Source: Branchiostoma floridae (Eukaryota; Chordata; Leptocardii; Amphioxiformes; Branchiostomatidae). Taken from it: DNA of 64,000 nucleotides. The stretch spans positions 12,512,968-12,576,967 of the forward strand of contig NC_049986.1 in assembly GCF_000003815.2 (NCBI RefSeq), in the 5' to 3' direction. The notes below the pieces were generated by a model. The model was not told where the DNA came from, did not search any database, and saw only the letters and a list, made by a program, of their open reading frames with translations. The translations under genes and the position numbers were made by a program. Position 1 is the first letter of the stretch. Each line of letters opens with the position of its first letter. Below, in pieces: positions 1 through 57,454 of the stretch.

Positions 1-1689
1 TAAATAACTTGTTTAAGATATTATATCTATTGTAGCTGACAAAACGCAAGATGTAACGTTAGATGTAATATGTTCTAGGAATTGTATGATTTGTAGCCTC
101 TTGTGTTGCACGGGTGATTTCAACAGTAAGTTGTATTGCAGTGTTCTTGAATATTTGATGTAAGATCATATATGATGGGTTACAGTCACTACTATCCCGA
201 AATGAATATTTCCATGTGATTTATCTGTGCATTTTCAGGTTACCAGAGTGTTGCACCTGCGCTAGTGGGAAGATCATTAATTCCTTGCAATTGTTTACGC
301 TATTTCAACTAATGTTAGTGTGGTAACGTTATACCTTGTTGCCTGCATGACCTTCTCACTTACTCACTATTCATGGTTTAACGTCTATTTCTCGCGCGCT
401 CAGTTTGCAGGGTTTAAACGTGATTGTGCTTCAGCTATCATGGCATCATCCTATATGTTTTAGGTCCTAAAATGTCTTCTTAGACTACGTGGAGACTTAG
501 ACTATGTCAAAGATGTTGGTTTGCTTTACACACGAGTTTTTTAGTCAACTTCACTCCACCGTGACATATCAACTCAGTTGAGTCGTAGGCCACGAAGTGA
601 TTTGGAACATCCATCAACGACAGCTGCGATTTGGGCTTAGCCTTCCTTGTCCCGCGCCTTCTCAAGTTAGTTTTGAATCTATCGTCTTTCAGATACTCAT
701 CCGCCATTGAGTCTCTAAAGTAGTCCAAGACCTGCCACGGCCTTCCGCCATGTCTCAACTAACAAAGCTGTTTAGGTGAGCAACAGCTGGCAAGATTCAG
801 ATGAATTGAGACTGCTGAAAATGTCGCTAACAAATCCTCTGTAATGACGTTTAGTGGTTTTGCGGATTAGGCTACGACTACTACCCTGAGCGTTGTGTAA
901 CTCACCCTGAATCTATTCCAGGTCGACTACATTTTGTTGCCTTGAAAAGGCGTCTTCTAACAGGAAACACCTGTCCCGCCATACCTTCCACTGTATTTGG
1001 AGAATCTTAATAAATAGATAAATTACACACACGAAAAACTTGGTGTTGGCCCTCCCACTGACTGACTCGAGTCCTCAGGAGTTGCCCAACTCGATTCGCT
1101 ACTTTATTTTATTCATGTAGTCCCCGCGGAAGTAAAGAGAACGTAAGCAATCCAATTAAGAACAGGTGAAACCTGACAGGTGATAATTAGGGATGCCTCG
1201 TATGTATTTAAGCGAGAAGAACACGCATACACGAGGCAGATACGAACGTTCGTCACCGGACGAAGGAAGCGCGAGGAAAGCAGCAAGGTTTAACGACCTC
1301 GATGCCAAGGGTATACCACCACCCATCCTGGCCTGACGCGGCTAAGGGACAAGTAGAAGACTTTTCGGTTCGGTTTGCAAAGCCGCACAGTGCCTGGAAA
1401 CTTGCTGCCGCCACGGATAGCGACAGTCCACCAGCCGAGCCGCGTCAGGGCCTTGGGGGAAGAATTTGCGGCAGGTGAACGGAGTTTCTGGCGTAGAATT
1501 GAGCGCTGCAAGTATTGGACATTTTCTGATTGTTTAGTTGCTCTCCATGTTTGCTTTTTGCTATAAGGGCCTTGGTACGAGTATTGCACTGAATTGACCA
1601 TATGTACTGCAAATTTGGACTGGAAGACGGTAATTAACATAACAATCTTGGAACGGAAGGAATTTGGCCACGTAGTTTATACCGATAAG

Positions 1690-2170
1690 AATTTGGCAAT
1701 GGAATGGAAGCAATTGGCCACGTAATTTTTAACCTGGACGGGGAGTATTGATGTAGACAATGTGGCAATGGAAGGAATTCGGCCATGGAATGGATTGGAA
1801 TTTGGGCCATGTAATTGAAGGAATTCGGCCACGGAATGGATTGGAATTTGGCCATGTAATTGAAGGAATTCGGCCACGGAATGGATTAGAATTTGGCCAT
1901 GTAATTGAAGGAATTCGGCCACGGAATGGATTAGAATTTGGCCATGTAATTGAAGGAATTCGGCCACGGAATGGATTAGAATTTGGCCATGTAATTGAAG
2001 GAATTTGGCCATGGAATGGAATGGAATATGGCCATGTAATGGAAAGAAGTTGGCCAAGGAAGGGAAGGAATTTGGCCATGGAAGTTGTAATCTGGACGAA
2101 CCAGGTATATGTAAATAATAGGGTAACGGGAGTAATTTGGCCATGGAATGGAAGGAATTCGGCCATGTAA
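1690..2170. repeat. 45-bp minisatellite
   Basis: About six tandem copies of a 45-bp unit lie at roughly 1774-2040. Each copy contains GGAATTCGGCCACGGAATGG and then a GGCCATGTAATTGAA half. More diverged copies flank the core on both sides. As 45 is a multiple of three and the unit has no stops in some frames, both strands look open; this is a property of the repeat, not coding evidence. Confidence 0.9.
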
Positions 2171-2728
2171 TGTGTAACATGAACTGGGAGTCAGGTAATG
2201 AGGAACACAAAATGGAAGGAATTTACCTATGGAATGGAAAGATTTTGTTCACGTAATTTGTAAGTTTGGTCTTAGAGCACGGTATGAATGAAAACTATGG
2301 TGGAATGGAAGTAGTAAATTCACATGTTATTGAAAAAAAAAAGTGGCATTTGGTTGTGGTGGATTAATGGTACAATAATTACAATGAGTTGCTAAACATT
2401 GCTCGAAGAGGTACCATAAGAACAAATTCGGAAGTTTCAATCCCTTGTGTTGCTATGGTTACTTTGACATGAAAGGGAGCAAGTGTATCGCTACAGTTGA
2501 CATTGCTTATGCAAAGCTGGCAAGTTCCTTCAACAGGCGAAGATGTTGCCGTCTCACTGTACATGTGATGTTGTGTTGAGTGCTAGTTGACATACGGCGG
2601 TACAGAATAGAAATCTCAGACTATGTAAATTAGAAAGACGGGTTCATGATGATTCCTTTTCGCACTTAGGGGAGGTAGTCATGCACTCTGGCGACCAGGT
2701 CATTCTGAGCCTCAGTACCTGGGGTGCT

Positions 2729-38593: not shown

Positions 38594-40506
38594 CTAGATT
38601 ATGACACAGCATGTTTTGTTATGTTCAGGTAGGTAGTTGAAGAAGAAAATACAGTTTTTGCCTACATCAGACACAACAAGACTCCTTGGCGTACGGGTCA
38701 CACAGCTTGGGTTTCCCAACCCATCATCTCTATCTGCGATAACCCCCACAAAATTGCAGAACCTGTCAAAGTACTGCAGCCTACCACTGCCCTGGTCAGG
38801 CACCACAAAATCATGGTCATGGGAGTCAATGTAGGTGCCTTGTCCAATAGGACCTTTGAACCTCCCGCCCCCTTGGCCCCACCCACCAATCACGTAAGCC
38901 AGACTAAAGTCTGCCCTGTAGAATAGCAGTTGCTTGGTCATGTTATTTGCAACAGAGAAATAACCAGGCCCAATAGGCTGCTTTGAAGGGGCCTCGCATT
39001 CAGTTGAGAGGCAAATTCTTGCAAAGATGTCTCCTTTTAGGTCAAACAGGACCAGCTCATTTTTGTCTGTAACACCCACTATGATTCCCTGAGCCTGTTC
39101 TAGGTATCGCACAATGGAAGGCTCTTTGAGCTGCCCTTTCCCAAGAGTTTTCAGAAACTTTCCCTTTTTCGTGAACAGTTTAGCAAGCTTCAGACCACTG
39201 TCTAGTACAACCATACGGTCTCTAGTAGGGTGCATAGAAAAACTGCATGGCTTGCTTCCGGTTTCCTCAGGAAGACTTACTGGAAAACTTCTTTTGAATT
39301 TACCTGTCAGGTCAAAGATTTGCATCCGGTGATTATTTTGGTCAAGAACAAAGAGACCTTTGTCTGTAGCAATGACAGCCACAGGCTGATCAAATTCCCC
39401 TTCCTCCTTTCCCTTGTGGCCAAATCGAACTATCTGAATAGGTTTAGGATAGATAGAACCTTTCTTCTTTTTTTCAGAAATGAATTCACCGGAGGTTTCA
39501 CTGTCGTTAGCAATGTCCATGCTACATTCAATCTCCTCTTCCTCTACATCACTGGCTTTACCATCCTCAGTAGTGACACTGCCCAAACTGTAAGAAGCGT
39601 TGGGAGAAGCTGGCACAAAAGTTAGCATCGGGGCAAGCACCTTTTCCTCATCCTTACTTAACACCCCAAGCTCTTTCAAGGCTTCTATACATGACAGANN
39701 NNNNNNNNNNNNNNNNNNNNNNNNNNNNNNNNNNNNNNNNNNNNNNNNNNNNNNNNNNNNNNNNNNNNNNNNNNNNNNNNNNNNNNNNNNNNNNNNNNGT
39801 CATCAGAAAGCACAGAGATGTTGTCCCTACACTGTTTCTCTATCTGCTTGATCAAAGCATCTCTCTGATTCTTCATACTCTCTTCCAACCTCACTATGCT
39901 CTCAGTCGTAGCTTGGATCACATCTTGTATAACAGTTTGCATGTTGGTCTCAATGCTGGACACTGCCTCTCTGATATACTGAGGTTTCTCTCCTAGTGCT
40001 GTCAACTTCTTTTTGGCCTGACTCACTAGCTGGACTAACTCTTCCTCTTTGCCTGGCATTATGTCTTGCAGGCGTTTTGTCTTGTGTTCGTTATGATCTG
40101 TGAAGAGACAGTCTTCACATATCGGAACACTGTGGGTTTCACAGAAGTACCTCATTTCTTTACTTGGATGTACTGGGCATGTTCTGTCATCCTTAAAACT
40201 ACAGTCAGCAGTAGTCTCAGACTCAGGCGTTATGTCGACAAGCTTTTGGGCACTTTCCATTAGATTTCTGATGACAAAGTTTGTCCCGAAGGCTGTAACC
40301 CCCCCACGAGGGACAGACACTTGAAGCCTGCACAGTGGACATGTAATGCGTGACCTGTTCCCTACACAATCCTTCAAACAATCTTTACAAAATGTGTGGT
40401 GGCATGGTAGACTCTTAGGGTCATTATATGTGTTAAGACAAATGCTACATGTTATTATGCTAATGTCTGCTGCAATGTAGTGCCTTTCCAGTGGCCCTGC
40501 TGCCAT
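38594..40506 (-). CDS. TRIM-family RING/B-box protein with NHL-like repeats
   Basis: Likely a ubiquitin E3 ligase. Single coding exon from ATG at 40506. The N-terminal part (236 residues before the gap) has a C3HC4 RING at about residues 20-60 (CSIC...CHHTFCKDC...CPLC), a B-box 2 near 107-150 (CPVHPSKEMRYFCETH... ending DHNEHK) and a helical coiled coil after that. After a 100-N gap, the last about 365 residues include an acidic linker, then beta-propeller-type NHL-like repeats, for example FDQPVAVIATDKGLFVLDQN and NHRMQIFDLTGKFKRSFPV. This layout matches the TRIM2/3/56 group. The frame across the gap cannot be checked. The last residues are HNKTCCVII. No exact orthologue is claimed. Confidence 0.85.
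39699..39798. other. Assembly gap (100 N)
   Basis: A run of exactly 100 N, so the true size is probably unknown. It falls in the coiled-coil to linker part of the TRIM gene. Confidence 0.95.
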
Positions 40507-42250
40507 TGTGGTCTCGAGTGCAGTGTGTCAGTTCTTCAAAATGGTGAGAAGCTGCTTTCTCTTTCTCTGTCTGTTAAGCCTAAAAGTGCAAGAGTAGATG
40601 CTTGCTTCCACATGAACTATTAACACATTGCTTGCAAAGGAACTATCATAACTACATGTACTGGAAATTATATGCAAGTGCATCAGCATGATTGAGACTT
40701 GAAATTATGCCATATTTTATATTATATGATGATCAAGAAAAAAATACTTTAAAAAACTTGAAATTTATAGACCATCTCTGACTCAACAGTGCTGTTTTAG
40801 AAGCATTGAGCTTGCTTGATTATATGCAAGATGGTCAGATCAATAATACATAATGATGTTGAATTATGTGACTGAACTCTGGTCTATGATGTTAATGTTT
40901 AATAGTAAAACCAACCTTCAGATCACCTGCATGACATGGTAGACCATTCAATAAGTTTGTGCTGTCATCAGATGAATACAAGTTCCTGGCAGAAATAACA
41001 TATGACCAAATTTGGAAATACAGGCATGATAGAAGCAATTTAGTCTACTATATTAGCATTATATAATGACTTTAGTTGTACAATAATTTGTTGTGCATGT
41101 GACATGACCTTCACATTTGCAAGGTTAGCCCTTCAAAGTGCATTTAGGCCCATAGGTTTTGTAACAGACGACAACATCTGACATGTCTTGTATTGTCAAA
41201 AAGTCAAAATGACAAGGAGTACAACGGCATGCAACTTTTCTTAGGTATCCCCACCATTGTACAAGTTGATAATCTAAATGTAAGAGATGCTCACTGCACT
41301 CAAACAGTGCAATTATTAACTTTCAATTGTCCCCTACCATACTACCAATATCATAAGCCCTACTGATGCTCACCTACAAACATCCTGAAATATCTGGCCC
41401 ACAGAATGGCCTTGATTGTCTCAATGGAGGAAATTGACAGTCTCCAATCTTCCAGTGATGTCCCTGTCTCTCAAATAAGTTTGAATCACGAGTTGGTGTA
41501 AGGTGCTGAACTTGTAACCTCAGCACTTTGGACTTTGCCCTCTCATATGGATTTTTATCATGCATAGGTCATGAGAAACTACTGTTCTGTCAACATTTGG
41601 TTGAAAATGGTTTTATGAAACAATGGTTACATGGACATTGTGTATGTGTGACCATATTGAAAACTGCTAAAATGACAATAAATTGTATTGATTTGATGGA
41701 TGATACAAATGCTAGATCTATACATTCTACATTATTGTGCTTGCAGATTCTGCTTTTTCCTCAATCTAAAGCCATACAATACATGACTAACTTGCATTAC
41801 GCTGGGGCAAAATCCTGTAGGCTCCATACATGCTTTTTGTCCAGTCTGTCCAAGTCTCATGTCATGACTTGATAACCATGTTTCTAAGATGAAAAGTTTA
41901 TGAAAAGAACTGTGTGCTCATAATATGTATTTGCTAACACTCAGCAATTTATCAGGTCTATTCCACCTCCTGAGCAGTTACACCTGGCCATTACTCTATG
42001 CATCTTTCTGGGGCACTTTTGCAGTAGTCTATTGGATTAGTTTTACATGGGTTCTGATCCTAGGGTTTTATAATCCTTCTTTCTTGCTGTCACAGGCTTT
42101 CAAGTTTTGAATTGGTCTCAGCTGACTCCAGTCTGAGATTTACTACAATCATGACATCTCATTTCCCTAGACAATGTTGATTTTTGCCCCTTGATATTAG
42201 TTCCTTTTTCTCTGAGTAAAATGTTTCAGCACACAACATAAGCCATGCAA
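40507..42250. other. Intergenic stretch without recognised gene
   Basis: Only short open frames without family similarity or splice support. It contains the TRIM promoter side and the 3' end of the large fusion gene. Confidence 0.5.
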
Positions 42251-42673: not shown

Positions 42674-43863
42674 CTAAAGGCCAAATGCCTCAAGGAACTT
42701 GCTGTGTGATGCATCCCAGTACTTTGAGGCCAAAAGTGTCTCTTTCAACCGTCTTGCAGCTTGAAACTCCCTTTTCCCATCCTTTAGAACCTTAATGATC
42801 CTCTTAGCAAGTGTTTTGGCGGCTTCATTGTCATCATCCGCAATCTCCACAATCAGACGATCAAACTCAGGGTCTTGGCTCCTTAAGAACCATGCAAGAC
42901 CAGACTTGTGGGAAACCAGAACTGGTACTCCTGCAGCAATGGCCTCGAGAGCAACCAGTCCAAATGGCTCTGCACGTGACGGCATCAGGACAACGTCGAC
43001 TTTCTGCATGTCTTCGCTCAGCTCTCTCTGTGTGGCGTACTTCAGGGGGGTGAAGTTGAATTTGCCCTTTTCCACATTGGCTTGAATAAGTTTCTTGCTC
43101 TCTGGAAAGTCTTCATGACTGACACCACGGACTCGCCACTTTGTGTTTGGTAGGTGGTCGATCACCATGCTCATGGCCTTTGCTACAAGATCATAGCCTT
43201 TCAGTATTTCTACGCCCATCACCCTGCCAATGGATAGTACCACTTTTGTTTCTGTGTTGACATGTTTCACTTGCACCTTGCTGAAGACGTCAGATGGCTT
43301 AGGCAAAAACTCATGGTGTGGCTTTATCTCTCTTGTCTGACTCTTATAGTAGTCATACATGTATGGGCCTACTGAGAATATCACATCGGCATGTTTTAAG
43401 TCTTCCAGAATGCTGTCACTCTCCTCCCCAATGCTCATCACCTTCTCATCACCCTTGTAGTGACTGGTGTCTTCTGGGATCACGTGAGTGACCTGGACCA
43501 ATTTGGCGTTAGGAAGGCGTTGCTCCTTGATCTGTCTTGCTGCACGGCTTGTGATGTTAACATGGCCGACGACGAAGCCTACCTCTGAAGGCAGGTTTGG
43601 ATAATGGCTCTTGTGCTCCCATGTCAGCCAATCAAGACTGGGTTTTCTCTTGTCTCCATCGGATGTTGTCGGAAAGATCAGCTGAACCCCATCGGCAGCT
43701 GCATCATCCTCATCATCCCTGCTGGCACCTAAGATGGTACTGTAGACCACTGCTCCTTTGGAAACCAGCATGCCTGCCATCTGGCGGTGTATTGTGGAGA
43801 CACCACCTCGAGAGGTGCCATATTCATCATTGATCATCAGCACCACAGGCTTGCTTCCAGATC
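42674..43863 (-). CDS. GT4-type glycosyltransferase domain exon
   Basis: Terminal exon of the fusion gene, about 396 residues, a full GT-B fold. The N-terminal half starts KPVVLMINDEYGTSRGGVS with the glycine-rich loop. The C-terminal half has SIGRVMGVEILKGYD and the GT4 signature AEPFGLVALEAIAAGVPVL, whose E-x7-E motif is intact. The exon begins with GA, completing a glycine codon from the preceding exon. No signal peptide or membrane segment, so a cytosolic enzyme is likely. Glycosyltransferase group 1 domains have been reported joined to NACHT receptors in corals; the link with ROC-COR here is read from this sequence. Confidence 0.9.
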
Positions 43864-46800
43864 CTTGAAACAATTCAGTGAAGAAGAGTGTAAAGATAAA
43901 TCAACATGTATTCATCTTATAATTTTCAATGATTGAGGCATAAAAAATCAATTTCCCTCTTGGGGTAAAAGAGGGACACATTGGTAAATGGGACAAATTG
44001 GGACAAATGGAAACACATTGTGGTACTTAGCTTCAAGTACATGTATATTGCTATGTATAGTTTGCTGTGCTGTTAATTACATTACATTTACCTACCCTTT
44101 GCTCTGGATTCTGCTCTTATGATGATGTCACAAGGCCCAACTCCAGGTTGAGATGTTTTATTACTGTCACCTTTGATACATAAACATTAACATTATCACA
44201 GTAATTGCAATTATTGGTGAATCTGTAACATATGTTGACAGCAATAATACCAACCAACTTGAAGAATTAATAAACAAGATTCATTCAAAGTTCTGATAAA
44301 GGAATATATACTTACCATCAAGACTAGCATAGTGGTTTTCAGCATAGTGACCCAGCAGAAGTGGCGGCCCTGTAGTGACTTGTTGGTTCCCCATAGGTGA
44401 CAGTATGGTTATGTAGTTGTCTGCATCAATGCTGGACACAATCCTAATGTCTCTGCCTAACATGGAAGCCAAGGCCTGTAGTACGATGTGATCTCCCCAC
44501 ACTCCATCTCGAGACATCTGCTGTAGGTAACCTTCCCAATCTAAATTGCGTACAAAGGCTCGAAGGTGATCACCCTTCTCCTGAGAGAGAGACAGGAGAT
44601 AAAATCAGGGTTAGAAGTAAACAGGTTCATCATAGATAATCATATCTGAAGTTACTGTAAATTATAACAGATAGTCCCAATTGACTTTTTAAAGTTAACA
44701 TTTCCTCCCTTAAAAGATTGTTGAAGATGAATGCATAAAAATATGTTCTTGATATAAATGGCTTTTGTCATGTATAAGAGCTTGTCAATTTTCTTTGGTA
44801 AAATGTTTTATATTCTGAAAATAGAAGGATCTACAAAAAATTATTGTAGCTATTCTCGTCCAACTGTCAGTACAATGCACTACCTGTTCATTTTGCAGAT
44901 AAAACAGACTTACATTGTGAGGATGTTGCCTCAAGTAGCCAACCACATCTTGTCTGAGCTGTGAGTGACTGATCGCTGTGCTTCCAGTGCGCACAAGCTG
45001 GTCAGATACAGCATGGAAGAGACAGTTCCCATCTTTGGGCACATCGGGTCGGAGCGTGAGGCCTGACTCCATCAGGTGGTCTCTCAGTCTACTTTGTTCA
45101 TCTCCTGGCTGCATCTCTATAGACATACTTCTGAACCTTTCCCATACATTCTCTGAGGCAACATATGATCAGAAAACAGTTAAGAAAGTGTTGGTCTGTC
45201 TGACATGCATGTTCTCATGTATTGAACCCACATTTTTTTTAAATTTGTTGTACTGCCATTTGATCAATTTTGCACATCATCTATATTGATTGTGTTCATC
45301 AGGCTCTGTGCATTACAGTCCCTTGAAATGTGTGTTGCATGAACTGTACGTTGTCTTCCTTATTGGATTACCAGGTTTTGGCTGTGTGAAAGGAAAAGTG
45401 ACTTTGTCAAGTTATATGCCAATAATTTTAAGACTTACATGATTTTCATACTTAACATTGATTCCCGAGATCCATGGAAATATTATCCTTGATAATGAAG
45501 CATTCAGTCGCTTTCAAAACTGTTGTTTTACCTGAATATCGAGGTTGTTTCTCCATCATGATCTCTTCAGGAGCTGGGCTTTTTCCACACTCCTCAAGTG
45601 CCCTCTTTCTCCGCTGTTGCCACTGCGCTGGGGCTAGTTTGTGTTGCAGAGACAAAAAGACAGTATACGTAATGCCTCAATATGAAAAATTGCCAAATCA
45701 ATTATGCGAAATATGCCAAATCAATTTATTATGTAAACCTTCTTAAGTGGTCACTGTAGACCTAAACCAATGCAGAAAACACAGTCATCTGAGATAAGGG
45801 AAGTACGCTTTCTCGTCTGCATTACAACCATTTTAAGTAACATCATGCATAATTATAGAAACATACTTGTGTGTGGGTGAATCAGTCTGGGGTCAATCTC
45901 ATCCCATGTCTTTGGACACACCACAATGCCTCCTGGTGTCTTGTCCAGAACAGCTCCGGAGAACCGGTGAGGTTTGTCCACCCCAAGCTTCAGACAGTGT
46001 GGGCACACCACTCGAACACAGTACAGTACACCTGGCCACTGCTGTAGGAGCTCCTTTGTTGCATTGATGATCAAGACCATAATACCCCATGCTTCCTTCA
46101 GTTTCTTGTTTTGTGTTTGCACAGAAATTAGGATTTCTTCACTTCTTTCCTTTGGTTCAAGTTGCACCAAAAGTTCAAATTTGTTCTTTCCCACCACACT
46201 GACTGCTTGAATGCCATATTGCCAGTCTTTACGATATTTGATGAATTTGTTCAGTTTGACTGAAAGAGTTTCAAACAGACCTACAGGGCAATAGTTTTGC
46301 AGTTGGAAGACCACCATGAGCACAACGTCATCAGGTTGAATTTCTCTGGGCATGCAAGTGGCAATAGCTGTTAGCAACCATGGAAAACGATACACAGGAG
46401 GCACAGACTGAATGGTGTATGGATCAGCATCCTCACATTGTGGCATTTCAAAACAAAGGTCAAACTTCTGAAGTAAACAGATTAACATAACTTCCTCTTC
46501 ACCTGATAGTTTCATATCTTTCCATAAACATTGCAACATCTGTTTTGAAACAATTCCTCGAGTTGAGAAATCCTCGACCATATCATCAAAGTCAGCATCA
46601 GATACTGAAGCAAATCGTTCATCAAATCTGTCAACTGGNNNNNNNNNNNNNNNNNNNNNNNNNNNNNNNNNNNNNNNNNNNNNNNNNNNNNNNNNNNNNN
46701 NNNNNNNNNNNNNNNNNNNNNNNNNNNNNNNNNNNNNNGAGTCAAAACCCTCTAATGGATGACACCAGGTCCAAGCGGCTTGCCAGCTTCTAGTTTAAAA

Positions 46801-49800
46801 CATCATCTATCTCTGACAAATATTTCTTGAGACTCTCTACCTCAGCAATTTCAATCTGCTTGGTTTTCTGCATTATCAATTCTGCTTTCCTCTCTATCTC
46901 TTCTGGCTCACACCTGTCTATGTGTGTAGCAACAATTCTGAGTACTGGTTTGGAGTCAAGACGAGTTTTTATCACATTCAACCAATATTTAACAGCAGCA
47001 TCAAATGATGATGATATGAAAGCCTCTAGATCCACAACTATAAGGTACAGTGCAGCCTTGCTAAAGAAGAACTGATGGGTTAAATGGTAGATCTTATGAC
47101 CACCAAAATCATGCATCAGAACCTGTATACTATCTTGTAGCCGAGTCGGATGAACTTCTATTCCTGCTGTTCTATCTGTGATATCTGTCAAATTTGATTT
47201 TCCCAGTCTGATGGCATTGCATAAGCTGGTTTTACCAGCTGCTACCTCACCAAGCAGAAGGGCCTTGACACGTGGTACTTCAATAGCTTTGGATAGATTC
47301 AGCTCTTCAAAATATGCAACAATTCCCTCCATCCCTTGTTCAAACACTTCAATTGGGGGCTGTTCTATAGGATTGCCATATATCTGTTCCTTTCCAAACT
47401 GACAAAGTTTGTGGAGTTTACCAAACTGTGTTGGCAATGCTGTGATATTGTTCTCCTCGAGGCTCAGATACTCTAGATTTTGCAGCTCACAAATGGTGTT
47501 TGGTAGAGTCTCAATTTTATTACCAGCAATGTTGAACTCAGTCAGGTTCCCAAACTCAAACATTTCCTCTGGTATTGCTTTCAGGTAATTTGATGAAATG
47601 TTAAGTGAGGTTAAGTTTACCAGTCTTGTAAAAGAACTGGGAAGTTCCTTAAGTTGGTTACTACGTAGATTAAGAACAATCAAGCTTAAAAGGTCCCCAA
47701 TTTTTTCTGGTAGCTCTGTTAAACTGTTTTCAGATATGTCAAGTGTTTGCAAGTATTTAAGCCTACATATGGATGAGGGAATACTTACAAGACTATTGCA
47801 AGATAGGTAAATTTCTTTCAAACAAAGCAGGTTACATAGTGATTTTGGAACTGCTTTTAAGCAGTTTGCAGAGAGTCTTAGTTTAGAAAGCTTCTTCAAT
47901 GTTCCTATACTATCTGGTAGCTGTTCAATTTGGTTATGTTCAAGAATCAACTCTTCAAGTTCTTGAAGATAGCCAATGGACTGTGGTAAACTGTTAAGAC
48001 TGTTACTAGAAAGGTTTATGTATTTAAGCTCTTTCATTCTGCCAATATCATCTGGAAGACTTTGTATTGCATTTGCTTTGTATTGATCAAGTCTGTTGAA
48101 TGACACATCAAGGTATTCCAATGATAGAAGATTGCTAATCCTCACTGGTAAGTTAGATAACTTGTTGTCTTGTAATGACAGACATCTAAGTGAGGTAATG
48201 TTGCATAGTTCATCTGGTAGGTCTTCAATTTTGTTTCTGCTTAGATCAAGGTGGGTCAAATTTACCATCAGTCCAATCTCCTCTGACACATTAACTAGGT
48301 TGCAGTTAGAAATGTTCAGTTCCTGAAGAGCAGTTTGTTGACAGACAAATTTTGGAAAGTCTTGGCTAATGTTGTAATACTTATTGCAACTGATATTCAT
48401 TCTCATCAGATTTCCAGGTAATTCTATTTCATAGGATTTGGGATCAAGGTCATAAAAGGCAACACTTAGCTCCTGTAAGGTGGAGATGACACCTAGATTT
48501 AGTATCTGGTCATCACCAAGTCCACTTAGGTCCATTTTGATTATGTCTCCATTGTATGTAAATCCATCAGGAGGGTTTATGATAAACAGGTCATACCCGC
48601 ATTGCAGCTTGACAACACCATGCTGCAACTCCTCCAGAGCAATCACCACTGGTGATATTAAGTTTTCATCCCTACCGTATGCCTCACAACATGTTTTATG
48701 ATCCAAATAAACAGCTCTTACTTGCACAGACGCTGATAACTGCTTAGCTGTGTTCCTTGGAATAGAGACAAGTTGCCAAAAGTCTACTGAAAGTTCTTGT
48801 AACTGTCCAAGTTCTAAAAGAAGGTCTAACTTATAGCAACCACAGTGAAACAATTTCAGACTTTTCAAAGAATCCAAGCATCTGAATGAGCCAGGTAAAT
48901 TAGTGAGTCTGTTAAGTGATACGTCAAGATATTCCAAGGAGAGAAGACTACCAATCATGCCAGGTAAGCTGGACAACTCATTGTCCTGCAGGTAAAGCCA
49001 CCTGAGTGTGGTAATGCGGCACAGGGAATTAGGAAGACATTGAATATTGTTTTTGCTAAGATTGAGGTAGGTCAAATTGACCAATTGTCCAATCTCTTCC
49101 GGCACACACTGTAGGCTGTACTTAGACATGTTGAGCTCCTGAAGTGCACTATGATTAAGGATGATAGCAGGAAAATCTTGATTACAATACATTCTTTCAT
49201 TACAACTGATATTTGGTTGGGTCAGATAATCAGGTAGTACTTTGTTAGATATGACATTAAGGTCACAACAAAGTGCAGCATCCAGCTCAAGTATAAAGGC
49301 ACAACTGAAAGCTATTTTGAGTATTTTGTTTTGTAATGTGCTTCCACTAAGATCCATTTTAACTATGTCATGACTGTTTCTGTGGGGACACTGTAGCAGT
49401 TGTACAACACCATGCTGTAACTCATTGGGAGCAACTATTGGTAAATCCTCTCCATCAATACAGTACTTTTTATAACATGTCTCATAATCTAGGGAGACAG
49501 ATTTGATTTGTAGATAACCTGGAAACTGAACAGCTGTCTGCTGTGGAATTGACACCAGCTGCCAAGCATCTATTGTTAAGACTTTCAATGCTTTAAGTTG
49601 AGGGAGAAAGTCCAACTGATAGCAATTACAGTGGAGCAAGTTGAGCTTGTTTATAGAACTTAACTCTTTGAATGACTCAGGTAAAGAATGAAGTTTGTTA
49701 AATGATACATCAAGGTATTCCAAATAGAATAGATTGCCAATCATCCCTGGTAATCTAGATAATTCATTGTCTTGAAGTGAAAGCCATCTAAGTGAGGTAA

Positions 49801-52800
49801 TGTTACACAGCTCATCAGGAAGGTCTTTGATCCTGTTTCTGCTCAGATCTAGATGAGTCAAGTTTAGCAGCTGTCCAATACCTTTTGACACATACTGCAG
49901 GTTGCAGTTAGACATGTTGAGCTCCTGAAGTGCACTTTGCTGACAAAAGACTTGGGGAAAATCAAGGTCATCATTAGCAGACATGCTTGTTTCAGTCAAA
50001 CTCATATCTAGTCTAGTCAGATTAACTGGTAACTCCATTTCTTCTATCAGGTCACGGCATTCATGATGATAAGCTCCTTTAGGGTATGAATGACTCCTAT
50101 ATTGAGTATACATTCATTATAAGATTCACATCCTCTTAAGTCCATTCTGATAATGTCTCCATTGTATTTGAAGTCATCGGGAGGGGTTAGCCAAAGATTT
50201 TCACTGCATTGAAGTTTTACAGTCCCATGTCGCAACTCCTCTAATGCAATCCCATCTGATGGTATGTCTTCTTCATTCTCACATCATCTCTCCTGACATG
50301 CCTCTTCATCTAAGTAAACTACTTCAATCTGTATGAAATCAGGTAACTGTTCAGCTGTCTGCTGTTTGATAGACACCAGCTGCCAAAAGTCTACTGTTAG
50401 TTCTGTCAACTGTTTCAGTTCAGAGAGAAAGTCCAACTGATAACAACCACAGTGGAATAGTTTCAACGTACTCATGCAATTCAACAGTTTGACAGCATTA
50501 GGTAAATAATCAATCATATTGATGGATACATCAAGATATTCCAAAGAGAATAGGTTGCCAATCCTCTCTGGTAAGCGAGACAACTTATTATGCTGTAATG
50601 AAAGCCCTTTAAGTGAGGTAATGTTACACAGCTTATCAGGCAGGTCTTCAATCCTATTTCTGCTGAGATCTAGATGTGTCAAATTTACCAGCTGTCCAAT
50701 ATCTTCTGGCACACAATGTAGTCCACATTTAGACAAAGTGAGTTCCTGAAGTGCACATTGCTGATAGATGACTTGGAGAAAATCAAGCTCATATTTACCA
50801 AACATGCCTGACAAAATTGGACTTATACATGTATCTACATGTAGTCTAGTAAGATTAACTGGTAACTCTATTTCTTTTATCACGTGAAAGTCGGCGATCG
50901 TGATGATAAGCTCCTTTAGAGTATTGATGACTCCTATAATGAGTGTTATGATATGATAAAATTCACGTCCTCTCAAATCCATTCTAATAATGTCTCCGTT
51001 GTATTTGAAGTCATCAGGAGGGGTTACAGAAAGATCTTTACTCCACCGCAGTTTTATGATCCCATGTCGCAAATCTTCTAATGCAATCCCATCTGATGGT
51101 ATGTCTAGTTCATACTCACAGAATCTCTCCTGACATGCCTCATTATCTAAGTAAACTATTTCAATCTGTATGAAATCAGGTAACTTTTCAGCTGTCTGCT
51201 GTTTGATAGACACCAGCTGCCAAAAGTCTACTGTTAGTTCTGTCAACTGTTTCAGTTCAGAAAGAAAGTCCAACTGATAACAACCACAGTGGAATAGCTT
51301 CAACGTACTCAGACAATTCAACAGTTTGATGGAATTAGGTAAATAATCAATCGTATTCATGGATACATCAAGATATTCCAAAGAAAATAAATTGCCGATC
51401 CTCTCTGGTAAGCTGGATAACTTATTTTGTTGCAATGAAAGCCATTTAAGTGAGGTAATGTTGCACAGCTTATCAGGAAGATCTTCAATGCTGTTTTTGC
51501 TGAGATCTAGGTGCATCAAATTTACCAGCTGTCCAATATTTTCTGGCACACATTGTAGTCCACATTTAGACAAATTGAGATCCAGAAGTGCACTTTGCTG
51601 ACTGACTATTTTGGAGAAATCATCATCAAATACGCCATGATTATATGCGCAATTACTAGTATAACACTGATGTAAACTCATATTTAGTCTAGTCAGATTC
51701 ACGGGTAATTCTATTCCTTTTAGGTCTGTATCAAGGTTACGGAAGGTAAGGATAAGCTCCTGTAGGGTATGAATGACACTTAGATTGAGTGTAAAGCCAT
51801 CATCAAGATGACTTCCACCCAACTCCATTTTGATAATATCTCCATTGTATCTAAAGTCATCAGGAGGGATTATTTGCAACTGATTATCACAGCATTGCAG
51901 CTTTATTACACCATGCATTAAATCTTCTAATGAAATCCTGTCTGATTCTACATATCCTTCACACTCAAGGAACATCTCTTGACATTTCCTTTTATCTAAA
52001 CAAACTACTTCAATTTGCACAGAACCTGGTAACTGTTCAGCTATCTGCCGTTGTATGGAGACCAGCTGCCACAAGTCCACTGTTAGTTCTTTCAACTGCG
52101 TAAGTTCAGACAGAAAGTCCATTTGATAGCAACCACAGTGGAACATTGTCAGTTTCTGCAGTGATGACAGTTTGGCCATTGATACAGGAAGCATCATATC
52201 TGTGATATAATTCATTGATATATTTAACTCTGTCAATGAGGGAAAACCTCCTATTGAATCAAGTAAAGTCTGAAGATTGCAATTTGACAAATTCAATTGC
52301 CTAATGGTATCCTTAAACCAACATATAATACATGTCTGCTTGAGTTCACACTGTAAATGTTCACTGAACCCACCTTCAGTCATTTCTTTTGTGTCAATTG
52401 TAACTTTCAAATATCCGTCATCTTTTCTTGCAATGAAGTGAGCTCCAGTTCTAGCAGAAGTAGGGTTATCATTACATTTAACAGTCACAGTCCATTCTAT
52501 ATTCTTCCATGGCATGGTCTTCAACTCAGACACATGGCTCAGATCCTGTAGCCTTTTTATATCCCAACAGAGAGTGTTGAGGTTTGTAAGTCTTGCAATG
52601 TCAACAGGAAAGGATGCAATATTGTTTTCTAGCAGATTTAAGTAAATAAGACTTTGTGTTTGTAAAACACCCTCTGGTATCATTTGAAATTTATTATAGG
52701 AAAAATCAAGGTGCTTCAAATTTGGAAACTTTGTAGCAGGTAGCTGTTGGACAGAATTGTAAGACATGTTAAAAATCTCCAATGAAAGTAATTCATGTAC

Positions 52801-54475
52801 CCCTGGGGGAATGGACTGGAGTTTGTTATGGGACACATTGAGAATCCTCAGTTTTGACAGAAGGTGTATCTCTTCTGGAAGAGCTGACAACAAATTGTGA
52901 CTAAGGTCAAGGTGTGTTAGTCTAGAGGGCCCCACCACTGGACTGCTGACTGAAAATGCTTTGATCCTGTTATGACTGAGTAGTATAGCTGAAGGGTGAT
53001 GAATATCAAAGAACTCTGGTAAAGTGTAAAGTCCTATACCTGAGAGGTCAATGTCACCCTTACAAATGTCAGCAGCATTGATTTCATATCCCTGACTCAA
53101 GGAAATTACAAGCTTTCCTTCCATCTCCTCAAAATACCATTCATCCTTATCTGTTAAATGTACATATTGTCTATGATCAACGCAGACTGTCACTCTTCTT
53201 TCCATACAAAAGTCTGACATGAGTTGATGTTCAGAGTCTTGGATAGGGTTGCCTGTGAAATGTATCTCTTGAAGTACAGGAAATGCACCATGTTTCAAAA
53301 ATGGCACAAGTGAAATTTGGTTGTGCTTTAAATTAAGATGCACAATCTTAACTAAATCCTCACAATTATCTGGCAAGCTGGTAATGGAATTACAGGCTAC
53401 ATCCAATGTTTGTAGCTCTGTGAGCTCTACAATAGATAAAGGGAGCCTCACCAGTTGGTTATCAAATACTTTGAGATGTTTTAACTTTTTAAGGTTGGAA
53501 ATGCTCTCTGGAATTTCTGTTATTGAATTGTCACAAAGATTCAATTCCTCCAGATTGACAAGACTTTTGAAAACTGATTCTGGCAGTGATGAAATTCTGT
53601 TACAACTTAAGTGAAGAATCCTAAGCTTCTTAAGGTTACCAATATTTCCTGGCAAATAGCCAAGGTCACAAACAGACAAGTTTAACTCCTCTAAATCTGA
53701 CAACTGGCAAAGCTCCTGAGGTAGAGTCTGGAGAGACTGGTTCCACCTGAGATTGAGCACCTTTAGTGATAACAGATTCCCTATCAATGGAAACACTTCT
53801 GACAGTTCATTATCTGAAACATCAAGCTCCTCAATACTCCGGAAGGAAAATACCTGCTCGGGTATGGTGACAAGGGAATTGTTTCGATAAATTAACACTT
53901 TCAGTGCCTGCATGTTTTCCATTCCTTTAGGAAACACCTGTATTGTGTTACCAGATATGTTCAATTCTTCAAGATTTGATAAAGATGAGATAGAGTCAGG
54001 TAGGTGGGAGAGTTTGTTGCAACTGATGTCCAAATATCTAAGCTGAAACAACAGACCTATGTCTGTGGGTATGACTTTGATGATGTTACGTTGGAAATTT
54101 AGGGCCTGTATGTCATGTTGCTGGAATACCTGGTCTGGCAGACTTGACATTTTCCTCCCAGACAGGTCTAGCTCAAGGAGTCCATCATCATTTTTTCTGG
54201 GTTTTATGATTTGCTCCTCAGTCTCATCGCTGTCTGTTTCTCTGTTATGACAACAAATAAAATGCCATGCTGTATTCATGAACCATGATCCAATAATACA
54301 GAAGAGTCTAGCTTGCAGAGCATCATTAGTTTGGCAAATTGGAAAATCAGGAAATATGATGTTAGAAAATGTTTGGTACTCACCTTAACATAGGGCCAGG
54401 ATTTTGCTCAATGTCTCCTGCCTGTAGTAGAAGTTTGTGTGCCATCATGAACCAGACCAACAGGCAAGACATCAT
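42674..54475 (-). CDS. 2A-LRR-ROC-COR-OTU-glycosyltransferase fusion gene
   Basis: Predicted exons: 54475-54384 (2A-like leader), 54241-45867 (LRRs, ROC, COR, containing a gap), 45633-45532 (linker), 45152-44914 and 44580-44316 (OTU), 44170-44096 (linker), 43863-42674 (GT4). Every junction has GT-AG sites and matching phase; about 3,440 codons without the gap. ROCO proteins are LRR-linked GTPases, OTU domains cleave ubiquitin chains, and GT4 enzymes move sugar from nucleotide donors. None of the OTU or GT exons has its own good start: the GT exon's first ATG would cut off the first beta strand of its fold. The position resembles an immune receptor with effector domains. Defects: TGA at 50286-50284, a frameshift near 50,050, and stops beside the gap. 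Alternatives are three separate genes or a young pseudogene. Confidence 0.75.
44096..44170 (-). CDS. Small linker exon between OTU and GT domains
   Basis: Twenty-five residues or so (GDSNKTSQPGVGPCDIIIRA...). Phase 1 in, phase 1 out, with a GTAGGT donor. The upstream polypyrimidine tract is weak (T-rich, AAAG acceptor), so this is the least certain exon. Without it the OTU and GT exons would still be phase-compatible. Confidence 0.55.
44316..45152 (-). CDS. OTU-type deubiquitinase domain (two exons)
   Basis: Exons 45152-44914 and 44580-44316 join in phase 0. The first encodes the catalytic Asp-Cys block PKDGNCLFHAVSDQL. The second ends with the catalytic histidine block AENHYASLDG. The SWIM-like middle (VWGDHIVLQALASMLGRDIRIV) is typical of OTU proteases. 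All three catalytic residues are present, so activity is plausible. Directly upstream, VWERFRSMSIEM continues the reading frame from the ROCO linker exon, tying the domain to the COR part. Confidence 0.9.
45532..45633 (-). CDS. Linker exon between COR and OTU
   Basis: Thirty-four residues, charged (WQQRRKRALEECGKSPAPEE). The acceptor CTAG has a good T-rich tract, donor CAG/GTAAAA. It completes a threonine codon from the COR exon and gives a glutamate codon with the OTU exon. Confidence 0.7.
45867..46638 (-). CDS. COR domain segment
   Basis: Open from the gap to donor A/GTATGT at 45867. Shows COR features: RGIVSKQMLQCLWKDMKLSG, a LLQKFDLCFEM block and a PPVYRFPWLL core. The C-terminal part carries a Cys-rich VCPHCLKLG. 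COR dimerises ROCO proteins and relays GTPase state. The reading frame is open right up to the gap. Confidence 0.8.
46639..46738. other. Assembly gap (100 N)
   Basis: Exactly 100 N between the ROC and COR segments. Missing sequence may contain an intron or coding bases. Confidence 0.95.
46790..50112 (-). CDS. LRR repeats and ROC GTPase segment
   Basis: Open frame of about 1,100 codons after the frameshift. It starts with LRR modules D and E, then a run of about ten 23-residue LRRs (for example LQELEELILEHNQIEQLPDS). Then follows the ROC GTPase with P-loop GEVAAGKTSL (about 47,262-47,222), Walker B-like HDFGGH and G4-like ATHIDR. The pattern is closest to MFHAS1/LRRK-type ROCO proteins. The segment ends at a TAG directly before the gap; a GAG/GTAGAG donor near 46,843 would remove it if an intron starts there. 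Confidence 0.85.
48760..52070 (-). repeat. Five tandem LRR modules, about 785-848 bp each
   Basis: The WQLVSI-coding segment occurs at about 52,060, 51,212, 50,375, 49,553 and 48,768, giving spacings near 848, 837, 822 and 785. Modules B and C are the most alike, over long stretches almost identical at DNA level. Growth by unequal crossing over is likely. Confidence 0.85.
50047..50286 (-). pseudogene. Module with nonsense codon and frameshift
   Basis: The stretch reads as module C continuation. It starts with a TGA replacing a phenylalanine codon of module B and ends with a 4-base deletion relative to module B, after CTTATCATCA. No good splice sites would remove both. Reading frames on both sides are open for kilobases, so sequencing or assembly error in a tandem repeat, or a very young allele defect, are both possible. 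Confidence 0.6.
50284..54241 (-). CDS. N-terminal LRR segment with 800-bp modules
   Basis: Begins at a CATAACAG acceptor and continues as about 1,320 codons of LRRs. First come about a dozen canonical repeats (LPDSISSLSNLEELNISGN type), a non-LRR spacer near 53,080-53,220 (DKDEWYFEEMEGKLVISLSQ), a second LRR block, then modules A-C of a long tandem unit. Each module has LRRs plus a spacer with a WQLVSI...YNGDIIKM signature. The TGA at 50286-50284 falls where module B has TTC, the following codons stay alignable, so it is a point lesion rather than the true end. Confidence 0.85.
54384..54475 (-). CDS. First coding exon with 2A-like peptide
   Basis: The only in-frame ATGs start at 54475 and 54472 (MM). 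The exon encodes a hydrophobic leader (SCLLVWFMMAHKLLL) and then QAGDIEQNPGP and MLR. It contains the 2A consensus D-[VI]-E-x-N-P-G-P, whose translation skips the Gly-Pro bond. The exon ends AG/GTGAGT and completes an arginine codon with the A at 54241, giving MLRETDSDETEEQ into the first LRR. Similar signal-like 2A leaders are known on sea urchin NLR proteins. Skipping would free the big protein from its leader; failure would send it to the secretory route. Confidence 0.85.
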
Positions 54476-55219: not shown

Positions 55220-57454
55220 TATCAAATGCAAGATATCCATGATTGACACATTATAGCCATGGGTGTTTATGTCAAATACTGGAGAATCAAGCAGTAAGTG
55301 GACTGCATGCCTCTCATTCTTTATTAGGTTTACCCATAAAGTATTAACGTTCTGCCATTTACCACAACATGAATTGGAATAAAATTTTCCTCATTGACTG
55401 ATATGCAAATCTATTCCTAATTCACACCGTTGGGACTTGGCATATAATGTTGATCTTCATCAAAGTTACCCACAGGGAAAAAAAAACATTCATTTCATCC
55501 ATCATCAAAACATTTATTTATCTCATCCTGACTTCAAAAGAAAACTGGTAGAGGTCTGATGATGTCACTTCTTCTGGAGTGCCTTTAGGATTTCCACTTC
55601 TCACTTAGGCAGCCTCACTTAGTATTCAAGCATTTTTTCCGTCCTACATTTGCTCTGGGGGTCAAGGAAAAATATAGTTTTGTGTGACCTTTGAACCCTT
55701 GCCAGGTATGTCGTTTCATCTCAAAAGCCGTGACGGATTTGTTGGGCTTTGTTCCGAACTTTAGGCTGGCAGATGAAAGTTAACAAAACTAATGACTATG
55801 TATTACAGGCCATTGCAGATTAACTCAATAGTGTTATACATATAGCTGTTACTGACGGTAACTTTTGGTCGTTCAATGTCAAAGTGACATTGGAACAACT
55901 GCGAACAACATCGGAAAACATGTCCGCCGTTTAGAACAAAGGTGCACCGACTGCCTGCCAAGTTCCCAGTGGATGGTTCAACTCCAACCCTATTGTTTAT
56001 TTACAATGTAACCCTCAATAATGAGGGATAGTTAAGGAATATATCATGGAACTATTACCTTGTATAGTCATGGCAACGGAGGACGGTTTTGTGGGGCATT
56101 CAGGACGGATGCAGAACACCTGGGAACACGTTCTTAAGGTTCCGCTTTCGTGTGTAATGTTATCCCTCACCGGGGATTCCCCTCCGTCACTGGAAATCAC
56201 CAATATATATATATATGTACAGGTTTATGTCATCGGTGGAAGGGACATTCATTTCTGGATTATTTTACCAGATACAGGTAGCCTGTAAATCCAAGTCTTC
56301 CCTTTGATTGAAAACTGTCTTCTAGGTAACGTTACCTTTGATGATATAGCACATGTATTTCATCGCATTGGTGACTGACCAAATTACACCCGGAAGTGCG
56401 AAGTACCATTACGCTGCCGACTCACCTTGACAACAAGTAGTTCTAGTTCAACTTCGTAGCAAAAAAAACACATCTATAAGAATGTTTCTTAAATTGTTCA
56501 TCTTTTTTTGAAGATATACGCAATTAATCTTTCTTCATTTTTGCCCCAAAACGATATCCGTACAGTAGGTGATGCTTACAGGTGTCTTTTGTCGAGTTTG
56601 AAAGTCCTCTTTTCATCTTCAACACTTATGGATAAATATTGATCCTCAGAATTACCATGTCACGCCCTTCACACCCAATAGCTTTCGATTCGCGGCCTTC
56701 CACGAGCGCTGGGGGAGCGCTGATTCGCGGTTCAATATCATGGGCCCAGGTTCTTTTGCCGCGAAGGGTTTGTATGGCGAGCCCAGACACGACCTTTGCG
56801 GCATAAAAACTAACCCTGGCCCAAGAATGACATGTCAATACACATGTAGACAATCCGTCTCGCCTGAATATTTGCCTTTTTATGGACTCGTCAACAGAAC
56901 GATACAATGACTCAATAAGCATTGCAATTTTTAAAAAGCATCAGAAATTCAATGATTGAACACTAATTACAGCAGTATTCACATATAACAGACTTGAAAA
57001 GTTTCTGAAAACCTTTTACTGTTCGCGAATCTGACTCAGAAGTACATTCCTGGTAGCTGTGCTACTAAAGAACTGAAAGAATCTAGATGCAATACATAGC
57101 GGTTGAAATGGGGGTATGATAAGAAACATCAAAGGTGGGTGTCCCAAACACCACTAACGTTACTACAAAAGTACAAACTTTAACTATGATTCGCCTCTGC
57201 TCTGATCTCAAATTGTAGCTACTATATCAACAAGTCCAACATATTAGCATTAACAGTCATCTCCTGTGTTGGTAAATGACATAGTGGAAAGGTTTACTAG
57301 CTGCATCCAAGACGAGCACAACACATGGTCAAGGCTGTTAAAAATCCACTCACACAATACACAGCGCTGCTAATGTTGCATCAAGAAAAAAAGTATTTTT
57401 AAAGACAATATCCGTCAACAGTATATGACTTCCAAAAACAACCAGGTTAAACCC
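55220..57454. other. Intergenic stretch without recognised gene
   Basis: No splice-consistent coding was found. One 98-codon minus frame near 56,626-56,922 lacks family similarity. Confidence 0.5.

What the first reader, a model, noticed from the sequence alone, without database searches (positions are those of the whole stretch)
42674..54475. LRR-ROC-COR-OTU-glycosyltransferase in one gene
Seven predicted exons join with consensus splice sites and matching phases at every junction, linking an LRR ROCO GTPase to an intact OTU protease domain and a complete GT4 glycosyltransferase. The OTU and GT exons have no own start codon in a sensible place, and no poly(A) signal was seen between them. 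I know of glycosyltransferase group 1 domains joined to NACHT receptors in corals, but not of this ROCO combination. A cytosolic sensor carrying ubiquitin-editing and sugar-transfer effectors is a new idea worth testing.
Basis: partly seen in the sequence, partly recalled or inferred. Interest (0 to 1): 0.93.

Follow-up and report, generated by a model that had tools for sequence, protein, structure and literature searches.

The report
Lancelet ROCO receptor with enzyme tail
A lancelet gene appears to join a leucine-rich-repeat GTPase of the LRRK2/ROCO kind to a ubiquitin-removing domain and a sugar-transferring domain, and three sister loci in the same genome show the same chain, although the copy in this window looks damaged in its front half.

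Summary
The exon chain is real. From the assembly gap to the final stop the window reads 879 codons (COR, linker, two OTU exons, a 25-aa exon, GT4) with no internal stop. The chain recurs, in phase, at three other loci. Genome-wide, 39 of 107 merged COR loci have a GT4, OTU, FIIND or caspase place within 15 kb downstream on the same strand, 0 of 107 on the opposite strand; shift control mean 0.34. Four of the 39 are OTU-GT4.

(1) The LRR/ROC exon holds in-frame stops at 50284, 46790 and 46742, a 4-nt deletion (~50055) and a 100-N gap between ROC and COR: this copy may be a pseudogene or null allele, or misassembled. (2) Two AATAAA hexamers lie in the interval, below chance. (3) Exon 1 encodes a hydrophobic leader ending in a 2A motif (GDIEQNPGP), shared with a ROCO-caspase locus.

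The architecture resembles bacterial LRR/AP-GTPase/COR/GT4 conflict proteins (Kaur 2021). Best reading: an NLR-like ROCO receptor family with swappable effectors. Against: two further OTU-GT4 pairs have no detected COR. Function is inferred; no transcript was seen.

The parts
54384..54475 (-). Exon 1: ATG, hydrophobic leader, 2A motif GDIEQNPGP, then 8 nt to a phase-2 donor gtgagt
   Evidence: motif at 54393-54415
45867..54241 (-). Exon 2: LRR-ROC-COR; acceptor cataacag; carries frame breaks and a 100-N gap
48086..51621 (-). LRR cassette array: five copies of a 276-nt core, spaced 786-837 nt, 70-78% identical to the reference copy
   Evidence: dN below dS in the four pairs tested
50284..50286 (-). 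In-frame TGA; the sister cassette has TTC
50050..50060 (-). 4-nt deletion relative to the sister cassette (frameshift)
   Evidence: place worked out from the frames
46916..47266 (-). Roc GTPase domain (PF08477); GEVAAGKTS, DFGGH and THID present
   Evidence: motifs read
46790..46792 (-). In-frame TAG about 52 nt before the assembly gap; a further in-frame TGA follows at 46742-46744
46639..46738 (.). 100-N assembly gap between Roc and COR
45940..46314 (-). COR-B (PF25497); matched part of COR-A at 46432-46566
45532..45633 (-). Exon 3: linker, phase 1-1
44914..45152 (-). Exon 4: OTU first half with DGNC, phase 1-0
44316..44580 (-). Exon 5: OTU second half with ENHYASLD, phase 0-1
44096..44170 (-). 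Exon 6: 25-aa linker, phase 1-1; not needed to keep frame in A, B or E, and not noticed there by eye
   Evidence: comparison by eye
42674..43863 (-). Exon 7: GT4-conflict glycosyltransferase (PF20706), EPFGLVALE (EX7E), stop at 42674-42676

Best explanation
The locus is one copy of a lancelet family of intracellular immune-type receptors built on ROCO GTPases instead of NACHT ATPases. Shown here: an LRR-ROC-COR region is followed, through in-frame introns, by exchangeable C-terminal modules; in this subfamily these are OTU plus GT4-conflict. Inferred: the LRR array senses a ligand, GTP-dependent ROC-COR rearrangement activates the tail, OTU removes ubiquitin (from a pathogen or signalling protein, or from the receptor itself as an off switch) and GT4 glycosylates a nearby target. 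Exon 1 probably acts as a 2A-type signal: when StopGo works, the receptor is released without its leader into the cytosol; when it fails, the leader sends it to the secretory route. The window copy itself is probably a damaged or incompletely assembled member of this family.
For: Same chain COR|linker|OTUa|OTUb|GT4 in phase at 4 loci: window, A C14:2.897-2.910 Mb and B C14:1.9635-1.976 Mb, E C10:17.025-17.030 Mb. In A and B, Roc and COR lie in one open frame of 1273 and 1041 aa. 39 of 107 COR loci have a same-strand downstream effector, 0 of 107 opposite; shift control mean 0.34, maximum 3 in 200 trials. Effectors seem to move between receptors: A and B share OTU at 83% but GT4 at 48%, while B and F share GT4 at 89% with ROC-COR at 68%. 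OTU Cys/His motifs are kept in 4 of 4 and the solved structures matched are OTUD5, OTUD1, OTUD3 and viral OTUs. GT4 evolves under constraint: dN/dS 0.18-0.24 against the five paralogs compared. 2A: 52 D(V/I)ExNPGP sites in 513 Mb, 1 in the reversed-pattern control; 2 of the 52 lie within 15 kb upstream of a detected COR (searches compared by eye), both with the same phase-2 donor 8 nt after the NPGP codons.
Against: No transcript or protein was seen. The window's LRR/ROC exon holds three in-frame stops, a 4-nt deletion and a gap. Linkage within 15 kb is not fusion: the full chain was read at four loci only. 33 of 57 GT4 places have no detected COR within 15 kb upstream on their strand. Two OTU-GT4 pairs, C4:22.41 Mb and C10:16.914 Mb, have no detected COR; for C4 the 10 kb before it (3632 of 10,000 bases are N) show no ROC or COR but an ankyrin-like frame, so OTU-GT4 is not tied to ROCO. 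68 of 107 COR loci have none of the four effectors tested. No NPGP was found in the 4.8 kb before B's or the 3.8 kb before A's LRR frame.
Confidence: 0.62

Rival explanations
1. The family is real but this copy is a pseudogene or null allele: the LRR/ROC exon is dead and the tail persists as a remnant.
For: TTC to TGA (two changes) and a 4-nt deletion within about 230 nt in an LRR cassette; TAG and TGA before the gap.
Against: COR, OTU and GT4 have no lesion over 879 codons. Two of the breaks lie within about 55 nt of an assembly gap and the other two in a tandem LRR array, where misassembly is common (recalled).
Confidence: 0.45
2. Neighbouring separate genes: a ROCO gene followed by an OTU and a GT4 gene in the same direction, joined by eye.
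For: AATAAA at 45730 just after COR; the window OTU exon contains Met codons before its core; 33 of 57 GT4 places, and two OTU-GT4 pairs, have no detected COR upstream.
Against: Four loci keep order, strand and frame across the splices; loci A, B and E have no Met before the OTU core; the window GT4 exon has no Met before its first strand; 0 of 107 COR loci have an effector on the opposite strand.
Confidence: 0.12
3. One locus with alternative products: full receptor, COR-terminated receptor and tail-skipped forms from the symmetric phase-1 modules.
For: Linker, the OTU pair and exon 6 are each phase 1-1, so they can be skipped in frame; F keeps COR and GT4 with no detected OTU; intronic AATAAA after COR.
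Against: No transcript evidence; the hexamer number is below chance.
Confidence: 0.3
4. The leader exon is a chance or retroelement-derived exon and not part of the receptor.
For: Many of the 52 motif sites share identical 23-nt sequences, as repeats would; a related leader lies about 0.9 kb before an OTU in a 2239-aa frame on C16.
Against: The leader and its phase-2 splice are conserved in front of a second ROCO (caspase) locus on another contig.
Confidence: 0.25

Closest known systems
Bacterial AP-GTPase (LRR-Roc-COR) conflict proteins with GT4 or other C-terminal effectors (Kaur et al. 2021, PMC8195603)
   Same: LRR sensor, Roc-COR switch, variable C-terminal effector that includes GT4 and caspase
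   Different: Animal gene with introns, OTU placed before GT4, 2A leader; phylogenetic link to the bacterial proteins not tested
Animal GT4-TRADD-N-LRR and coral GT4 families (same paper)
   Same: GT4 conflict domain, including in cephalochordates
   Different: Those use TRADD-N or other modules; a ROC-COR-OTU-GT4 order is not described in the text read (figures and source data not seen)
LRRK1/LRRK2 and other ROCO proteins
   Same: LRR-Roc region aligns to LRRK2 chains (84-86 bits for the best) and to 'Rab family protein' 6hlu and 8r4b (68 and 66 bits), recalled as C. tepidum Roco
   Different: OTU and GT4 instead of kinase and WD40 (LRRK2 layout recalled)
Sea urchin NLRs with N-terminal 2A-like signal sequences (Roulston et al. 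2016, PMC4981915)
   Same: Short N-terminal hydrophobic leader ending in D(V/I)ExNPGP on an LRR immune receptor
   Different: NACHT receptor there, ROCO here; recoding not measured here
OTUD5/OTUD1/OTUD3 deubiquitinases
   Same: OTU core with DG(N/A)C and HY motifs
   Different: Weak similarity (26-30 bits) and a receptor context

Membership tests
ROCO (Roc-COR) proteins | Roc GTPase domain over curated cut-off with P-loop | tested here: met
   PF08477 56.8 bits vs 27; GEVAAGKTS read in the sequence
ROCO (Roc-COR) proteins | COR directly C-terminal to Roc in one reading frame | tested here: inconclusive
   Window has a gap and frame breaks between them; met in loci A, B and C in single frames of 1273, 1041 and 1309 aa
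ROCO (Roc-COR) proteins | GTP binding and hydrolysis | not testable with these tools
   No biochemistry
OTU deubiquitinases | OTU profile match with catalytic Cys and His | tested here: met
   PF02338 64.0 bits on joined exons vs 23.3; DGNC and NHY in 4 of 4 loci
OTU deubiquitinases | Ubiquitin cleavage | not testable with these tools
   No assay
GT4-conflict glycosyltransferases (PF20706) | Full-length profile match | tested here: met
   252 bits, profile positions 1-381 of 385
GT4-conflict glycosyltransferases (PF20706) | EX7E donor-site motif (motif recalled) | tested here: met
   EPFGLVALE, both Glu invariant in 7 of 7
2A/StopGo dual-targeting leaders | D(V/I)ExNPGP at the end of an N-terminal hydrophobic leader | tested here: met
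   hydrophobicity judged by eye, no SignalP run
2A/StopGo dual-targeting leaders | Recoding activity | not testable with these tools
   Needs in vitro translation
NLR (NACHT/NB-ARC) receptors | NACHT or NB-ARC NTPase | tested here: not met
   None among Pfam hits of the eight window frames scanned; it may work like an NLR, it is not one
Bacterial AP-GTPase conflict systems | LRR + Roc + COR + variable effector in one protein | tested here: inconclusive
   Order matches across the paralogs, but one transcript is not shown; of nine bacterial GT4-conflict proteins scanned none had a Roc or COR hit

The most novel reading that the evidence does not exclude
Lancelets carry an NLR-like receptor repertoire whose switch is a ROCO GTPase: dozens of ROC-COR genes with exon-shuffled enzymatic or signalling tails (OTU-GT4, FIIND-GT4, caspase, OTU, GT4), some with a 2A leader that splits one receptor between cytosol and secretory route. 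It would be an animal counterpart of the bacterial AP-GTPase conflict proteins.
Probability: 0.5. Interest if true: 0.82.

Novelty: new variant of a known kind. Interest (0 to 1): 0.66.

Why it matters
Animal ROCO proteins are studied mainly through LRRK2 and Parkinson's disease, and their ancestral job is debated (recalled). A chordate genome in which ROCO proteins carry deubiquitinase, glycosyltransferase, FIIND and caspase tails would tie the ROCO switch directly to immune effector control, as proposed for bacteria, and would offer natural constructs to test how Roc-COR activates an attached enzyme. A 2A leader on a second class of LRR receptor would suggest that dual targeting by StopGo is a recurring device rather than a sea urchin peculiarity.

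Tried and rejected
Chance domain hits: rejected, all but the truncated COR-A are over Pfam cut-offs. Bacterial contamination: rejected, GT4 sits behind in-frame introns at four loci. The idea that bacterial relatives of this GT4 sit behind Roc-COR: nine bacterial GT4-conflict proteins (of 44 loci fetched; 29 had their frame measured) gave NB-ARC or AAA over cut-off in 4 of 9, CATRA in 1, TPR, weak or no partners in the rest, and Roc or COR in none; of 16 genomes of these loci searched for COR-A, 2 had one, and no GT4 was found in the two stretches fetched. The bacterial LRR-Roc-COR-GT4 fusion therefore rests on the paper alone. A single intron removing both mid-exon breaks was considered but not tested; I did not accept it because that stretch is LRR coding sequence in the sister cassette. 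Structure prediction was not run. The C16 leader and OTU locus could not be read. The OTUb comparison with locus A was out of frame and is not used; one search replaces it. In one search, 32 of the 48 FIIND rows were entered and the 16 weakest left out; caspase rows were typed and not recounted. COR counts are merged places (84 COR-A and 40 COR-B rows give 107, the window included); the Roc rows were not used there.
Full report
What is there. The window is a stretch of contig C8 of a 513-Mb genome. The gene lies on the minus strand. Pfam finds LRRs, Roc, part of COR-A, COR-B, OTU on two exons and GT4-conflict. With GT/AG borders, seven exons can be drawn from 54475 to 42674.

What holds. From just after the assembly gap the spliced reading runs COR, linker, OTU, OTU, a 25-aa linker and GT4 for 879 codons to a single stop. 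Catalytic motifs are present: Roc P-loop, OTU DGNC and NHY, GT4 EX7E (motif meanings recalled).

What does not hold. Exon 2 is not open. It has a TGA at 50284, a 4-nt deletion near 50055 against its sister cassette, a TAG at 46790, a TGA at 46742 and 100 N at 46639-46738. Read through, the seven exons hold 87 stop codons. Two of the breaks lie within about 55 nt of the gap, where sequence quality is often poor (recalled); the other two lie in a tandem array of LRR cassettes. A pseudogene, a null allele and an assembly fault cannot be told apart here. Two AATAAA hexamers lie between COR and GT4, against 3.8 AATAAA or ATTAAA expected by shuffling.

Why one gene. The own genome has 57 GT4-conflict, 84 COR-A, 40 COR-B and 75 OTU places (lower bounds). 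Three other loci repeat the chain: A (C14, minus), B (C14, plus) and E (C10, plus). In window, A and B, COR ends in phase 1, the linker is 1-1, OTUa 1-0, OTUb 0-1 and GT4 starts in phase 1; the window adds a 1-1 exon before GT4. In E, COR ends in phase 2 and the linker is 2-1, still in frame. The junctions of A, B and E were read by eye. In A, B and E there is no Met before the OTU core. In A and B, Roc and COR share one open frame.

A family with exchangeable tails. After merging, 107 COR loci were tested for GT4, OTU, caspase and FIIND places within 15 kb downstream on the same strand. 39 of 107 have one: 15 FIIND-GT4, 9 caspase, 5 GT4, 4 FIIND, 3 OTU-GT4, 1 OTU-GT4-caspase (where the caspase may belong to a neighbour) and 2 OTU. 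None of 107 has one on the opposite strand, upstream or downstream. 17 of 107 have one upstream on the same strand, as expected of tandem arrays. Shifting the effectors gave a mean of 0.34 and a maximum of 3 in 200 trials. 68 of 107 had none of these four. On C14, receptors from 1.945 to 2.036 Mb carry GT4, OTU-GT4, caspase, GT4, caspase and caspase in turn. A and B share OTU at 83% but GT4 at 48%; B and F share GT4 at 89% with ROC-COR at 68%. Tails thus seem to move between receptors, and phase-1 borders would allow it.

Limits of that picture. Linkage is not proof of fusion; the whole chain was read only at the four OTU-GT4 loci. 33 of 57 GT4 places have no detected COR within 15 kb upstream, and two OTU-GT4 pairs (C4:22.41 Mb, C10:16.914 Mb) have no detected COR. 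The 10 kb before the C4 pair, 3632 bases of it N, hold no ROC or COR match but an ankyrin-like frame and a first OTU exon 55-61% identical to those of A, B and E. OTU-GT4 may thus be a cassette that several receptor types use.

The leader. Exon 1 encodes MMSCLLVWFMMAHKLLLQAGDIEQNPGP. The motif D(V/I)ExNPGP has 52 sites in the genome and 1 in the reversed control, many in identical, repeat-like copies. Two of the 52 lie within 15 kb upstream of a detected COR: the window and locus C (C14:18.605 Mb), whose leader ends GDVEENPGP and whose LRR-ROC-COR frame of 1309 aa is followed by a caspase. Both have a phase-2 donor 8 nt after the NPGP codons and a phase-2 acceptor. Sea urchin NLRs bear such leaders; one recoded at about 80% by the authors' qualitative estimate and acted as a signal when recoding was abolished (PMC4981915: abstract, one passage and the first part of the Results seen). 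The 2026 StopGo paper (PMC12846837: passages only) cites that case, and its text has no hit for Branchiostoma, lancelet, Roco or NLR.

How it may work. Inferred: LRR sensing, ROC-COR switch, OTU and GT4 acting on nearby targets, 2A leader splitting the product between compartments. The solved structures matched by OTU are OTUD5, OTUD1, OTUD3 and viral OTUs. In the nine bacterial GT4-conflict proteins scanned the GT4 is C-terminal, behind NB-ARC or AAA modules over cut-off in four and CATRA in one.

Comparison with print. Kaur et al. 2021 (PMC8195603: section 15 whole, other passages) describe bacterial LRR-AP-GTPase-COR proteins with GT4 among at least 24 domains, and animal GT4 with TRADD-N. 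Its figures and source data were not seen, so a lancelet ROCO-GT4 could be listed there. The listings showed no title or abstract naming an animal ROC-COR-OTU-GT4 protein; two searches listed only 20 of 150 and 12 of 32 papers. LanceletDB (PMC6526094) and PMC2575513 have no hit for roc or otu (passages only). The library holds open-licence papers only.

Verdict. A real, recurrent architecture; new variant of a known kind; this copy probably damaged or misassembled.

Noticed in passing
L073 (G000:C17:3102300-3110600) and C3/C191 clusters: COR followed by Death (44.6 bits), FIIND (68.9 bits) and GT4 on one strand at C17; 15 of 107 COR loci show FIIND then GT4. FIIND is the self-cleaving module of NLRP1/CARD8 (recalled).
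   Followed up: partly
L071+L065+L072 (G000:C14:18605000-18616500): 2A leader, LRR-ROC-COR frame of 1309 aa and a caspase domain (99.9 bits on two joined frames) on one strand: a ROCO-caspase candidate with a StopGo leader.
   Followed up: partly
L076 (G000:C4:22400500-22410499) and C4:22411921: OTU then GT4 with no ROC or COR match in the readable part of the 10 kb before, but an ankyrin-like frame: perhaps the same tail on another receptor.
   Followed up: partly
G000:C16:10022056-10023290: A leader 63% identical to exon 1 lies about 0.9 kb before an OTU in a 2239-aa open frame; possibly a mobile element that joins 2A and OTU.
   Followed up: no
window 48086-51621: Tandem LRR cassettes of about 260-280 aa inside one exon, 786-837 nt apart; possible source of receptor length variation.
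   Followed up: partly
window 38594-40527, minus strand: RING/B-box-like frame and a second frame, split by another 100-N gap (39699-39798); TRIM-like by eye.
   Followed up: no
window 56602-56910, plus strand: Frame with CGIKTNPGPR, a degenerate 2A-like motif as in non-LTR retroelements (recalled).
   Followed up: no
window 1677-2222: Short repeated peptide motif open in several frames on both strands, so probably a tandem repeat.
   Followed up: no
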